Below are positions 55,113 to 59,281 of a stretch of DNA of 64,000 bases, piece after piece (the stretch's first letter is position 1; the number at the start of each line of letters is the position of its first letter). The stretch spans positions 1 through 64,000 of the forward strand of contig NZ_JAJFAV010000023.1 of NCBI RefSeq assembly GCF_020711235.1, read 5' to 3'. The notes beneath the pieces are model-generated. The model had not been told where the DNA came from. It made no database searches and saw only the letters and a list, made by a program, of their open reading frames with translations. This stretch comes from Hymenobacter sp. 15J16-1T3B (GTDB lineage: Bacteria > Bacteroidota > Bacteroidia > Cytophagales > Hymenobacteraceae). The position numbers and the translations under genes were made by a program.

Positions 55113-55170
55113 CCCGAAGTTTCCGGGCCGACCATTGCAAGCGTTGGATGGTCGACCCGGAAACTTCGGG
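55113..55170. repeat. Inverted repeat between convergent genes
   Basis: Arms of 23 bases (55113-55135 and 55148-55170, CCCGAAGTTTCCGGGCCGAC onward) differ at one position, with a 12-base loop. Related short words (TTCCGAAAGTT at 55091, CTCCGAAAGCTCTCGG at 55175, CCCGAAGTTTTTTT at 55197) repeat around it. It can act as a terminator for both neighbours and also looks like a dispersed repeat. Confidence 0.8.
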
Positions 55171-55247
55171 TGGCCTCCGAAAGCTCTCGGGGTCCGCCCG
55201 AAGTTTTTTTGTTGGATAAAGTAAAGAGAAGTAAGACGAGGCCGGAT

Positions 55248-55682
55248 TTACTGCTCGACTACGGAATACCTGCCGACCCGCCAACCGTTGGGCTGCCGCA
55301 CCAGCTGGCCCGCAGCCACTACGCCCTCGATGGCATAACCCAACCGGAAATCCAGGGTGTCCTGCCGCTGCCGCAGCAGCCCGAGGCGCACGTAGTCGCG
55401 GATGCGGCGCTGCTTCAACTGCTGGTCGGTCAGCAGCACGACGGCGTGGTTGAACTTCCGCAGCCGCAGGCCGGGCGTGGCAAAGGCGTCGACCTGAAGC
55501 TTCACCGGCAGCCGTTGGGCTAGTTTGGCGTGGTAGTAACCTTGTAGGTCGGGTAAGTCGAGCAGGAGCTGCAGGATCTGCTGCCGCTCGGTGGAGGGGA
55601 GGGTAGTGGGCTGGGGCTGCCAGGCGGGGCGGGCAGCCAGGCAGAAGATGGCGGCGAGGAGCAGCTTGGCAAGGCGGAGCAT
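55248..55682 (-). CDS. Small secreted protein, unknown function
   Basis: A 144-residue protein with a signal peptide (RLAKLLLAAIFCLAARPAW). The mature part has ERQQILQLLLDLPDLQGYYH, RLPVKLQVDAFATPGLRLRK, FNHAVVLLTDQQLKQRRIRD, and DTLDFRLGYAIEGVV. No family is recognised. ATG 55682 begins the signal peptide. It is convergent with the aldo/keto reductase and next to the AT-rich island that starts about 55690. Confidence 0.72.
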   Translation of the reverse strand: MLRLAKLLLAAIFCLAARPAWQPQPTTLPSTERQQILQLLLDLPDLQGYYHAKLAQRLPVKLQVDAFATPGLRLRKFNHAVVLLTDQQLKQRRIRDYVRLGLLRQRQDTLDFRLGYAIEGVVAAGQLVRQPNGWRVGRYSVVEQ

Positions 55683-55991
55683 AGAGAGCCTGTTGATAAG
55701 TGATACAATACTGAACCCAAGTCAGATGAGTGCTAATCCTTTGGCGGGTTGCTTTCATCATATTCCCGCTCAACTTCCTCATAGTAAGGCGACAGGGACG
55801 GGCCTGGTGCGTGACTCAGTTGCCCACGCTTAAGCGTGTACCCCATACAGGCACAAGTTTAGCTTAACGTAACTCAGGCCTACGATAAGGCAAAAATTCG
55901 TTTAGTGCAGGTCAAAGACAAGTGCTAAAAATATTAGACATTCTGCTAAATGTTAAGTTATTTGCTCAAGTACAAACAAGCATTTACAAGA
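55683..55991. other. Left border of the AT-rich island
   Basis: The gap moves from GC-rich to AT-rich DNA; from about 55840 to 55991 it is mostly A and T (for example GTGCTAAAAATATTAGACAT). It should hold the promoter of the DUF4062 gene. No attachment site, direct repeat or integrase was found. Confidence 0.6.
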
Positions 55992-57230
55992 ATGGCGAAG
56001 TCTCTAACTCACATCAGTATTTTTTTAGCGTCACCGTCTGATCTGCAGCAAGAACGCAAAGCAGTAGCAGAAACTGTGATAGAACTCAACGGCGTACTGA
56101 GAACCACAATGAATGTATGTCTTGACTTGCTAACTTGGGAAACGCACTCTTTCCCTTCTGTGGGGGAAGATGCTCAAGATGTTATTAACAAGCAAATAGG
56201 TGAAGATTATGATATATTTTTAGGTTTAATGTGGAGTCGTTTTGGGTCTGTTACTGGGCGTGCTGGTTCTGGGACGGAAGAGGAATTCAATAGAGCATAT
56301 GATAATCATTTGAAGTCCTCTGGTAAGACAAAGGTTATGATGTATTTTGGGTCTAAGCCAATTGTATTTGAGGATATTGATGTTGATCAAATAGTCAAAA
56401 TAAAAGAATTTAAGAAAAAAACTCAAGATATGGGTGTTCTTCACTCTAGTTTTACTGATGTAGATGATTTAGTAAGATTATTGAAATTGCATTTGCCTCA
56501 CCATATTAAGGAAATAATAGATGATGACAAGCCTATATCCATTAATTCAATGGATGAATTGGATGGAGGTAAAGTTGAGAAAGTATTCGATAACCCAATA
56601 GAATTGGACGTGGATATGGGATATTGGGACTATCAGGAGGTTTTTCAGAGTAATTTTTCTGAGATTGGTATTGTAATGGAGGCTTTGACAGAATATTTAC
56701 ATGAGCTGACTAGTAATATGAATGATACAACAGATAAGCTAAATTCTTTGAAAGAAAGAGGTAATTATAAGCCAACTGAGGTTAAGCTTGTGATTAGTAA
56801 ATTTTCGAAAGAAATATTTCATTATGTAAATAAGTCAAAAGTAGAAGTTAGTAGGTTTAATGAGTTGTATACTGAAGGTATAGATTCATTGACAAAAGGG
56901 TTTTATATAGCTGATGCAGACTATGAAATGGGTATTGATGAAGTTCGGCAACTTGTATCTGATCTTGATGAAACAGCTGCTGTAGTTAAATCAGCTGCTA
57001 AATCAGCGCGTGGTTTTAAAAGTAAGATTAATAATTGGCCTTCTGTATCCAAAGAGTTAAATATTGCTATCAGGACTTTGAATAATAATATTGATATGAC
57101 TATTAAAGAATTTTTAGGATGTGAAAAAATGCTATCAGAGCTTTCTGACTTAGTAAACGATAAGCTTGCTAAGCTTGAGGGAGAAGCCGATCCAGATACT
57201 GGAACAGGTGCTTCTTTAGCTGATGAGTGA
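55992..57230 (+). CDS. DUF4062-domain protein, AT-rich, likely acquired
   Basis: A 412-residue soluble protein. The N-terminal DUF4062 domain (about 5-120) has ISIFLASPSDLQQERKAVAE, LLTWETHSFPSVGEDAQDVI, DIFLGLMWSRFGSVTGRAGS and GTEEEFNRAY. The rest (about 120-412) is helical and charged, with a long coiled-coil-like part from 225. DUF4062 is known mostly at the N-terminus of NTPase and repeat proteins linked to immunity-like roles; here it is alone. Codons favour A/T ends, unlike all neighbours. ATG 55992 (MAKSLTHISIF) is preferred to 55950. Function unknown; a defence role is inference. Confidence 0.85.
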   Translation: MAKSLTHISIFLASPSDLQQERKAVAETVIELNGVLRTTMNVCLDLLTWETHSFPSVGEDAQDVINKQIGEDYDIFLGLMWSRFGSVTGRAGSGTEEEFNRAYDNHLKSSGKTKVMMYFGSKPIVFEDIDVDQIVKIKEFKKKTQDMGVLHSSFTDVDDLVRLLKLHLPHHIKEIIDDDKPISINSMDELDGGKVEKVFDNPIELDVDMGYWDYQEVFQSNFSEIGIVMEALTEYLHELTSNMNDTTDKLNSLKERGNYKPTEVKLVISKFSKEIFHYVNKSKVEVSRFNELYTEGIDSLTKGFYIADADYEMGIDEVRQLVSDLDETAAVVKSAAKSARGFKSKINNWPSVSKELNIAIRTLNNNIDMTIKEFLGCEKMLSELSDLVNDKLAKLEGEADPDTGTGASLADE

Positions 57231-57254
57231 GTAACTTTTGATGCTGCTGAGAAG

Positions 57255-57298
57255 CTTCATTAATGAAGACTATCTAATGACATACGTAAAGGATAGTC
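57255..57298 (+). terminator. Hairpins closing the DUF4062 gene
   Basis: CTTCATTAATGAAG (57255-57268, perfect palindrome) and GACTATC/GATAGTC (57268-57274, 57292-57298) lie 24-68 bases after the stop codon, in AT-rich sequence that ends at about 57300 where GC-rich DNA resumes. Confidence 0.5.
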
Positions 57299-57309
57299 TA
57301 TCTACGCCG

Positions 57310-57317
57310 TACCTTTG
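57310..57317 (+). promoter_or_regulatory. TAnnTTTG -7 element before the ABC-F gene
   Basis: TACCTTTG fits the Bacteroidota -7 consensus, 26 bases before the ATG at 57344. No -33 TTG at proper distance was found. Confidence 0.45.
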
Positions 57318-57343: not shown

Positions 57344-59281
57344 ATGATTTCCATCTCCGACCTCGACTTTCACTTCGGTGCCCGTACGCTTTACGACGGG
57401 GCCAACCTGCACATCAAGCCCAAGGACAAAATCGGCCTCATCGGGCTGAACGGCCAGGGCAAATCCACGCTGCTGCGCCTGCTGGTGGGCGAGTACCGCC
57501 CCGACGGCGGCAGCATCAGCATGAGCAAGGACGTGACGCTGGGCTTCCTGAACCAGGATTTGCTTAGCTACGACTCGCACGAGCCCATCCTGGTGGTGGC
57601 CATGCAGGCCTTCGAGGAAGCCCTCGGCCTGCAGAAGAAGATTGACGAGGTGCTGCTGGAGTTTGAAACCAACTATACCGACGACCTGGTCGACAAGCTG
57701 GCGGCCCTGCAGGAGCGCTTCGAGGCCCTGGGCGGCTACACCATGCAGGCCCGCACCGAGGAAATCCTCGAAGGCCTGGGCTTCACCACCGAGGAGCTGC
57801 AGCGCCCGCTGAAGCTGTTTTCGGGCGGCTGGCGCATGCGCGTGATGCTGGCCAAAATCCTCTTGCAGGAACCCTCGCTGCTGCTGCTCGACGAACCGAC
57901 CAACCACTTGGACTTGCCCTCCATTAAGTGGATTGAAAACTACCTCGCCGGCTACGAAGGCGCGGTGATTATCGTGTCGCACGACCGGGAATTCCTCGAC
58001 AACACCACCAACATGACGGTGGAAGTGACCGGCGGCAAGCTGGTGCCCTACGCCGGCAACTATTCCTTCTACATGGAGGAAAAGGCCCTGCGCGACGAAA
58101 TTCAGCAGGGCGCCTTCGACAACCAGCAAGCCGCCATCCGGCAGGCCGAGCGGTTTATCGAGCGGTTTAAGGCCAAGGCCTCCAAGGCCAAGCAGGCCCA
58201 GAGCCGCCAGAAGATGCTCGACAAGATGGAGCGCATCGACTCGGTAGCGCCCGAGGCGGCCAAGGTGAACTTCTCCTTCCGCTTCTCGGTGCAGCCCGGC
58301 CGCCACATCCTGCGCATGGAGCACGTGACGAAGAAGTACGGCGACAAGCTCATCTTCCGCGACACCAACGTGCACATCGAGCGGGGCGACAAAATCGCGC
58401 TGATCGGGGCCAACGGCAAGGGTAAATCCACGCTGATGCGCATGGTGTCGGGCTCGGAGGGGCCGACGGCGGGCACCCACCAGCTGGGGCACAACGTCAT
58501 CATGGCCTTCTACGCCCAGCACCAGCTGGAAAGCCTGAACGTGGACAACGAGGTGCTGCAGGAGATGGTGCAGGCCGGCTCCAAGCGCACCGAAATGGAA
58601 TTGCGCACGGTGCTCGGCTCCTTCCTCTTCACCGGCGACTCGGTGTTCAAGAAAATCAAGGTGCTCAGCGGGGGCGAGAAAAGCCGCGTGGCCCTGGCCA
58701 AAACGCTGATTTCGGAGGCCAACTTCCTGCTGCTCGACGAACCGACCAACCACTTGGACATGCAGTCGGTCAACATCCTGATTCAGGCGCTGGAGCAGTT
58801 TGAGGGCACCTTCCTGGTCATCAGCCACGACCGTTACTTCGTGGAAAACGTGGCCACCAAGATCTGGTACATCGAGGATTTCCAGCTGAAGGAGTACCCC
58901 GGCACCTACCACGAGTACGAGCAGTGGCAGGACGAGCGCGCCAAAGACGCCAAGAAAGCCGGCCTGAACGCCCCGGCCGCCCCGAAGCCCAAGCCGGTGG
59001 AGGTGAAAAAGGAGCTGAGCCAGCAGGAGCGCGAAACCACCCAGCGCGAGCTAAAGCAAACCAGCAAGCAGCTGCAGGAAGTGGAAGCCCGCGTGAGCAA
59101 GCTGGAGCAGGAGCTGGCCGCCTACGAAAAGCAGCTCGGCGACGCGAACATCTACAACAACGCCGCCCAGCTCAAGGACACCACGGTGAAGTTTGAGCAA
59201 GTGAAAAAGGAGCTGGCCAAGGTCAACGACCAGTGGGCGGAGCTGGCTGAGAAAGTGGAAACGCTGGAAGGCAAGCTGTAG
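57344..59281 (+). CDS. ABC-F family ATPase (translation factor)
   Basis: A 645-residue protein with two ATP-binding cassettes and no membrane part. Walker A: GLNGQGKSTLLR and GANGKGKSTLMR; signature: LFSGGWRMRVMLAK and LSGGEKSRVALAK; Walker B: LLLLDEPTNHLD and FLLLDEPTNHLD. An interdomain linker rich in Lys and Glu (about 240-320) and a C-terminal coiled coil (about 560-645) are typical of Uup/EttA-type proteins, which act on the ribosome. It resumes the normal GC-rich codon use after the AT-rich gene. ATG 57344 (MISISDLDFHFG). Confidence 0.95.
   Translation: MISISDLDFHFGARTLYDGANLHIKPKDKIGLIGLNGQGKSTLLRLLVGEYRPDGGSISMSKDVTLGFLNQDLLSYDSHEPILVVAMQAFEEALGLQKKIDEVLLEFETNYTDDLVDKLAALQERFEALGGYTMQARTEEILEGLGFTTEELQRPLKLFSGGWRMRVMLAKILLQEPSLLLLDEPTNHLDLPSIKWIENYLAGYEGAVIIVSHDREFLDNTTNMTVEVTGGKLVPYAGNYSFYMEEKALRDEIQQGAFDNQQAAIRQAERFIERFKAKASKAKQAQSRQKMLDKMERIDSVAPEAAKVNFSFRFSVQPGRHILRMEHVTKKYGDKLIFRDTNVHIERGDKIALIGANGKGKSTLMRMVSGSEGPTAGTHQLGHNVIMAFYAQHQLESLNVDNEVLQEMVQAGSKRTEMELRTVLGSFLFTGDSVFKKIKVLSGGEKSRVALAKTLISEANFLLLDEPTNHLDMQSVNILIQALEQFEGTFLVISHDRYFVENVATKIWYIEDFQLKEYPGTYHEYEQWQDERAKDAKKAGLNAPAAPKPKPVEVKKELSQQERETTQRELKQTSKQLQEVEARVSKLEQELAAYEKQLGDANIYNNAAQLKDTTVKFEQVKKELAKVNDQWAELAEKVETLEGKL

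What the first reader, a model, noticed from the sequence alone, without database searches (positions are those of the whole stretch)
55690..57300. AT-rich island with a lone DUF4062 gene: candidate defence cargo
A 1.6-kb block with strongly A/T-biased codons is inserted between GC-rich genes. The single product has a DUF4062 N-domain, a fold known from immune-type NTPases, joined to a helical, coiled-coil-rich C-part with no recognised effector. A lone, horizontally acquired gene of this kind could be an unreported single-gene antiphage or toxin system.
Basis: partly seen in the sequence, partly recalled or inferred. Interest (0 to 1): 0.65.

Follow-up and report, generated by a model that had tools for sequence, protein, structure and literature searches.

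The report
Lone antiphage-type NADase gene, new tail
A single imported gene in a Hymenobacter-like bacterium encodes a protein whose front half matches a recently described family of NAD-destroying antiphage enzymes (DUF4062) and whose back half is a four-helix module different from the known one, so it is most likely a variant of a known suicide-defence protein.

Summary
Window 55992-57227 encodes one intact 412-aa protein at 35% GC in a 65% GC window; homology to sister strains breaks at 55670 and resumes at 57304. Residues 1-180 are DUF4062. A May 2026 preprint (PMC13174449) shows DUF4062 to be a TIR-like NADase and the effector of the antiphage system Swarozyc, so the domain is not an NTPase fold and this kind of defence is already reported. 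The only solved relative by sequence is that enzyme (KpSwz); its catalytic E97 aligns with E98 here, invariant in all full-length relatives aligned. The C-part is different: AlphaFold gives a confident bundle of four long helices (pLDDT 89.5, pTM 0.80), with no profile similarity to the portal-sensing domain of close KpSwz homologues. Where found, it was always behind DUF4062 (four phyla, patchy). Inheritance at this site is not vertical: 6 of 8 genus genomes lack the gene, one has a 41%-identical copy elsewhere, and the same-site copy in another genus is not its sister. Other genomes carry other defence-type genes at this site. Verdict: a Swarozyc-like abortive-infection NADase with a different, untested sensing or assembly module. 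Defence activity is inferred, not shown.

The parts
55671..57303 (.). variable AT-rich block (36.8% GC) between conserved flanks
   Evidence: blastn to same-genus G002 and G003 stops at 55664-55670 and resumes at 57304; GC
55992..57230 (+). DUF4062 plus four-helix protein, 412 aa, stop included
55992..56531 (+). N-domain, residues 1-180: DUF4062 / TIR-like, predicted NAD hydrolase
   Evidence: Pfam PF13271; PADLOC PDC-S60 7.8e-55 over residues 8-186; KpSwz 5.6e-5; structural matches to SPARTA TIR-APAZ, TIR-STING and NDT/DNPH1
56283..56285 (+). codon of E98, predicted catalytic glutamate in SGTEEEF, equivalent to KpSwz E97
   Evidence: invariant in all 13 aligned full-length relatives; aligned with natural Swarozyc homologues TEKEF/TEMEY
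56532..56621 (+). acidic, low-confidence linker, residues 181-210
   Evidence: pLDDT 26-52; net charge -6
56622..57185 (+). C-part, residues 211-398: four long helices (211-256, 261-310, 315-347, 354-398)
   Evidence: AlphaFold2 of the C-part alone, pLDDT 89.5, pTM 0.80
57310..57317 (+). TACCTTTG, match to the Bacteroidota -7 promoter motif TAnnTTTG of the downstream ABC-F gene; lies just right of the junction
   Evidence: the motif itself from general knowledge
57344..59281 (+). conserved ABC-F ATPase gene bordering the variable site
55248..55682 (-). conserved small gene (144 aa) bordering the variable site on the left
   Evidence: 67-70% identical in G002 and G003

Best explanation
A single-gene, horizontally acquired antiphage protein of the DUF4062 (Swarozyc-like) kind. 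The N-terminal TIR-like domain, with catalytic E98, is held inactive in the resting oligomer. On infection the C-terminal four-helix bundle binds a phage structure or product, or is rearranged by it. [quoted passage not shown] Shown here: domain identity, conservation of the catalytic Glu, predicted fold of the two halves, mobility and partly defensive context. Inferred from KpSwz: NADase chemistry, autoinhibition and abortive infection. Pure inference: that the four-helix part is the sensor and assembly module; its trigger is unknown and need not be the portal.
For: DUF4062 above Pfam's cut-off. The only PDB relative by sequence is KpSwz, an NADase required for phage defence. KpSwz E97, shown as Ala in the structure chain (E97A construct) and as Glu in natural homologues, aligns with E98, which is invariant across 13 relatives of 27-40% identity. 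The N-domain model matches TIR NADases and nucleoside-deoxyribosyltransferase-type enzymes at Z 10.8-12.7. The C-part is a confident four-helix bundle and every clear match to it lies behind DUF4062. No membrane-spanning segment. Patchy and not vertical. The site carries other defence-type cargo in other genomes. One relative lies between an Mrr-like nuclease gene and two methyltransferase genes, another near a PD-Lambda-2-like gene.
Against: No activity was measured. Three of four human DUF4062 proteins tested in the same preprint (NWD1, NWD2, NPHP3) showed no NADase activity, so the domain alone does not prove catalysis. Among the neighbours scanned, several relatives had no defence gene nearby, and the window gene's flanks are housekeeping. 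Small GTPases reach similar Z with the N-model, so the fold match alone is weak.
Confidence: 0.68

Rival explanations
1. The DUF4062 domain here is catalytically inert or makes a signal rather than destroying NAD+: the protein is an adaptor or signalling component that needs an unlinked partner.
For: NWD1, NWD2 and NPHP3 carry DUF4062 without detected NADase activity, and some bacterial DUF4062 genes sit in operons with other enzymes. TIR enzymes can make signals.
Against: The TIR-type catalytic Glu is invariant. The window gene is alone in its block, with no partner.
Confidence: 0.15
2. The helical C-part is itself an effector, for example a membrane-acting bundle, and DUF4062 is the sensor or switch.
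For: Foldseek's weak list for the C-part includes long-helix pore-forming proteins (MakB, NheA, Hbl) among many unrelated bundles.
Against: Those matches have E above 0.1 and TM at most 0.34. No hydrophobic segment in any of 13 relatives: highest 19-residue mean 1.4. The best matches are STAT coiled-coil and syntaxin bundles at Z 9-11, within the range of chance for bundles.
Confidence: 0.07
3. A non-defence accessory enzyme (nucleotide or NAD metabolism, or inter-bacterial competition) carried as ordinary mobile cargo.
For: The N-fold is shared with nucleoside-processing enzymes such as DNPH1 and deoxyribosyltransferases. AT-rich accessory genes lie on both sides of the ABC-F gene at similar rates.
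Against: Closest characterised relative is an antiphage NADase. Relatives have defensive neighbours in some genomes. No secretion signal was looked for; none is evident in the N-terminus MAKSLTHISIFLASPSD.
Confidence: 0.1

Closest known systems
Swarozyc (KpSwz, DUF4062 antiphage NADase; PMC13174449, PDB 10wc/11cq/11cv)
   Same: single gene; N-terminal DUF4062 TIR-like domain; the equivalent glutamate (E97 there, E98 here); helical region after it; mobile and patchy
   Different: about 30% identity in the N-domain. KpSwz's C-part is a stalk plus HTH/winged portal-binding domain; here it is four long helices with no profile similarity to the C-parts of close KpSwz homologues (hhalign probability 0.2%). 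Insertions of about 12 residues after the first helix and about 4 after the catalytic helix in the alignment.
PADLOC candidate PDC-S60
   Same: N-domain matches at 7.8e-55 over residues 8-186
   Different: the PDC-S60 profile is 906 positions long and only positions 5-181 match; the long C-part is absent here
TIR-domain NADases (SPARTA TIR-APAZ, TIR-STING) and plant RPS4/RRS1 TIR
   Same: flavodoxin-like TIR topology, Z 10.4-11.4, with Glu at the start of a helix after the third strand
   Different: sequence family is DUF4062, not a canonical Pfam TIR family (none matched); no partner gene such as Argonaute or cyclase
Eukaryotic TEP1, NWD1, NWD2, NPHP3
   Same: contain DUF4062 (PMC13174449)
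   Different: there joined to a NACHT ATPase and, in several, repeats; no NTPase domain here

Membership tests
DUF4062 domain family (PF13271) | match above Pfam's curated cut-off | tested here: met
   36.5 bits against 24.7, residues 10-102
DUF4062 TIR-like NADase | catalytic Glu equivalent to KpSwz E97 | tested here: met
   E98 aligns with the Glu of natural Swarozyc homologues and is invariant in relatives
DUF4062 TIR-like NADase | TIR-like fold | tested here: met
   beta/alpha model matching TIR-APAZ, TIR-STING and deoxyribosyltransferases at Z 10.2-12.7; GTPases score similarly, so the sequence link carries the weight
DUF4062 TIR-like NADase | hydrolyses NAD+ | not testable with these tools
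   needs an enzyme assay
Swarozyc as characterised (KpSwz) | HTH/winged auxiliary domain that binds the phage portal | tested here: not met
   no profile similarity to the C-parts of KpSwz homologues; C-part model is all helix, four helices of 33-50 residues, no strands. The KpSwz structure itself was not compared directly
Swarozyc as characterised (KpSwz) | protects against phage by abortive infection | not testable with these tools
   needs a plaque assay
Swarozyc as characterised (KpSwz) | found near defence genes, patchy, mobile | tested here: met
   patchy; relatives beside R-M or PD-Lambda-2-like genes; site shared with other defence-type cargo
PDC-S60 (PADLOC) | full-length match to the 906-position profile | tested here: not met
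   only positions 5-181 match
STAND / NACHT NTPases | P-loop NTPase domain beside DUF4062 | tested here: not met
   no NTPase family among Pfam, NCBIfam or PADLOC matches

The most novel reading that the evidence does not exclude
The four-helix C-part is a new class of phage-sensing or assembly module that controls a TIR-like NADase, spread over at least four phyla (Bacteroidota, Pseudomonadota, Planctomycetota, CSSED10-310), and recognises a trigger other than the one known for Swarozyc.
Probability: 0.4. Interest if true: 0.6.

Novelty: new variant of a known kind. Interest (0 to 1): 0.42.

Why it matters
It extends the newly described DUF4062 NADase defence beyond its tested C-terminal type. 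The family is small, compact and single-gene, so the question 'what does the four-helix part sense?' can be tested directly with escaper phages. It also marks the region upstream of a conserved ABC-F gene in Hymenobacteraceae as a place where defence-type genes are swapped.

Tried and rejected
Clean empty site in sister strains: not found; G002 and G003 keep both flanks but hold two other genes in the gap. GC-based claim that the upstream side of ABC-F is a special insertion hotspot: not supported by counts alone (low-GC ORF upstream in 13 of 81 genomes, downstream in 16 of 80); only the kind of cargo differs, on small numbers. Low GC as proof of recent import from one donor: weakened, because all six other Bacteroidota relatives examined are 30-35% GC whatever their host, and the other-phylum relatives are mostly below their surroundings too. 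Phage or viral carriage: no relative in viral contigs or phage records. Direct terminal repeats or an integrase at the ends: none seen. C-part fused to a different effector: not found; two weak matches in ORFs over 1,400 aa (E about 1e-3) had no tblastn support and look like chance coiled coil. Known fold for the C-part: only generic bundles, STAT and syntaxin-like, Z up to 11.2.

Full report
Observation. The block is real. A single ORF starts at 55992 and ends with a stop at 57230. Its GC is 35.1% (GC3 27%), while the 2-kb flanks are 66% and 61%; no other stretch of that length in the window is below 56.7%. The natural start is MAKSLTHIS at 55992: relatives start there. The promoter scan gives more sigma-70-like sites than shuffles, but Bacteroidota use another promoter type, so it is not informative.

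Borders. In two same-genus genomes (G002, G003) the genes AKR, a 144-aa gene and ABC-F lie in the same order. Nucleotide homology to the window stops at 55664-55670 and resumes at 57304. In the gap these genomes carry two other genes of ordinary GC. The other five genus genomes have different upstream genes. The right border falls a few bases before TACCTTTG (57310), which fits the Bacteroidota -7 promoter motif and is kept in most of the genus, so the ABC-F gene seems to keep its own promoter whatever lies upstream (motif from general knowledge).

What the N-domain is. Pfam gives DUF4062, PADLOC gives the N-part of candidate PDC-S60, and the only solved relative by sequence is KpSwz, E 5.6e-5. 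The preprint PMC13174449 shows that DUF4062 is a TIR-like NADase, that KpSwz protects E. coli against phages by depleting NAD+, that this needs E97 and the C-terminal auxiliary domain, and that the phage portal is its trigger. The PDB chain reads TEKAF at the key place. Natural homologues of 62-71% identity read TEKEF or TEMEY, which fits the E97A mutation of the deposited construct (inferred) and places the catalytic Glu on E98 of the window protein (SGTEEEF). E98 is invariant in the 13 full-length proteins aligned. The full-length model (pLDDT 76, pTM 0.46) has the alternating strand-helix order of a TIR-like domain and matches DNPH1, SPARTA TIR-APAZ and TIR-STING at Z 10.8-12.7; small GTPases come close, so the fold alone would not decide.

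What the C-part is. Predicted alone from 14 relatives it is a confident bundle of four long helices (pLDDT 89.5, pTM 0.80; residues 211-256, 261-310, 315-347, 354-398). Its best structural matches are a designed protein, STAT coiled-coil domains and syntaxins at Z 9-11, within the range seen by chance for bundles. It has no profile similarity to the C-parts of KpSwz homologues and no membrane segment. Every clear match to the C-part lies behind a DUF4062 domain: Bacteroidota, Pseudomonadota (Azonexus, Rhodoferax), Planctomycetota and CSSED10-310. The DUF4062 domain itself is far more widespread and sits on many other C-parts.

Inheritance. In the family, 14 of 204 genomes have any match and 4 have the full-length protein. 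In the genus 2 of 8 have it: the window, and G004 with a 41%-identical copy just upstream of a ClpB-like gene, while the ABC-F proteins of the two genomes are 96% identical. In G134, another genus, a relative sits upstream of the same ABC-F gene, but the tree puts the window copy with G004 and G092 at 100/100 support and leaves the G134 copy outside (the G134 branch is long). This speaks for separate arrivals at the same place.

Setting. Upstream of ABC-F in other family genomes lie an OLD/AriA-like AAA ATPase (G022), a PDC-S64/DUF3644-like gene (G005), a RAMA/PDC-S14-like gene (G041), a Schlafen-AlbA_2 gene (G080) and, further off, an MmeI-type restriction-modification gene (G007). Low-GC ORFs are as common downstream of ABC-F as upstream (16 of 80 against 13 of 81), so I claim a variable place with defence-type cargo, not a proven hotspot. 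Of the relatives elsewhere, L007 lies about 14 bases behind an Mrr-like nuclease gene and ahead of two methyltransferase genes, and G480's copy is near a PD-Lambda-2-like gene. For several others no defence gene was found among the neighbours scanned.

Mechanism. Most likely: resting oligomer with closed TIR-like active sites; infection rearranges it through the four-helix part; NAD+ is hydrolysed and infection aborts. The first and last steps are borrowed from KpSwz, and the role of the four-helix part is inferred from position. Confidence 0.68 that this is an antiphage NADase; about 0.4 that the C-part is a new sensing class.

Novelty. The effector and its use in defence are known since May 2026; the C-part type is not described in the text I could read (supplements not available). 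I therefore call it a new variant of a known kind.

Noticed in passing
window 55671-57303 and loci L079, L088, L096, L104, L119: The interval upstream of a conserved ABC-F gene carries different single defence-type genes in different Hymenobacteraceae genomes (OLD-like ATPase, PDC-S64/DUF3644, RAMA/PDC-S14, Schlafen-AlbA_2, DUF4062 twice). Counts alone do not set it apart from the downstream side.
   Followed up: partly
window 55113-55206: Between the AKR and 144-aa genes lie strong inverted repeats (23-nt arms, 96% complementary, 12-nt loop; a second pair follows). Related repeats occur several times at the same place in G002 and G003; only this copy was found in the own genome.
   Followed up: partly
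genomes of family f37 (for example G538, G681, G794): One Bacteroidota family carries up to four DUF4062 matches per genome, many in proteins of about 1,000-1,080 aa; an expansion that could be a diversified immune repertoire.
   Followed up: no
plasmid hits: DUF4062 N-domains are common on plasmids of Enterococcus (130 records) and Staphylococcus (152 records).
   Followed up: no
L070 1-421 and 553-1407: An Acinetobacter plasmid has a DUF4062 gene about 130 bases behind a reverse transcriptase family gene, a possible joint system.
   Followed up: no
L007 2010-7714: A relative of the window gene sits between an Mrr-like HARE-HTH nuclease and two type II methyltransferases, possibly one operon.
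   Followed up: partly
L114 4965-5795 and L133 (upstream of ABC-F): Two genomes (G055, G110) share a 277-aa AT-rich gene of no known family at the same place; a candidate defence gene. The G055 copy was scanned in Pfam and PADLOC without a match.
   Followed up: partly
L009 8001-8501 and L012: Two relatives look broken: L009 has the two halves in separate frames, L012 has a stop codon inside the match.
   Followed up: no
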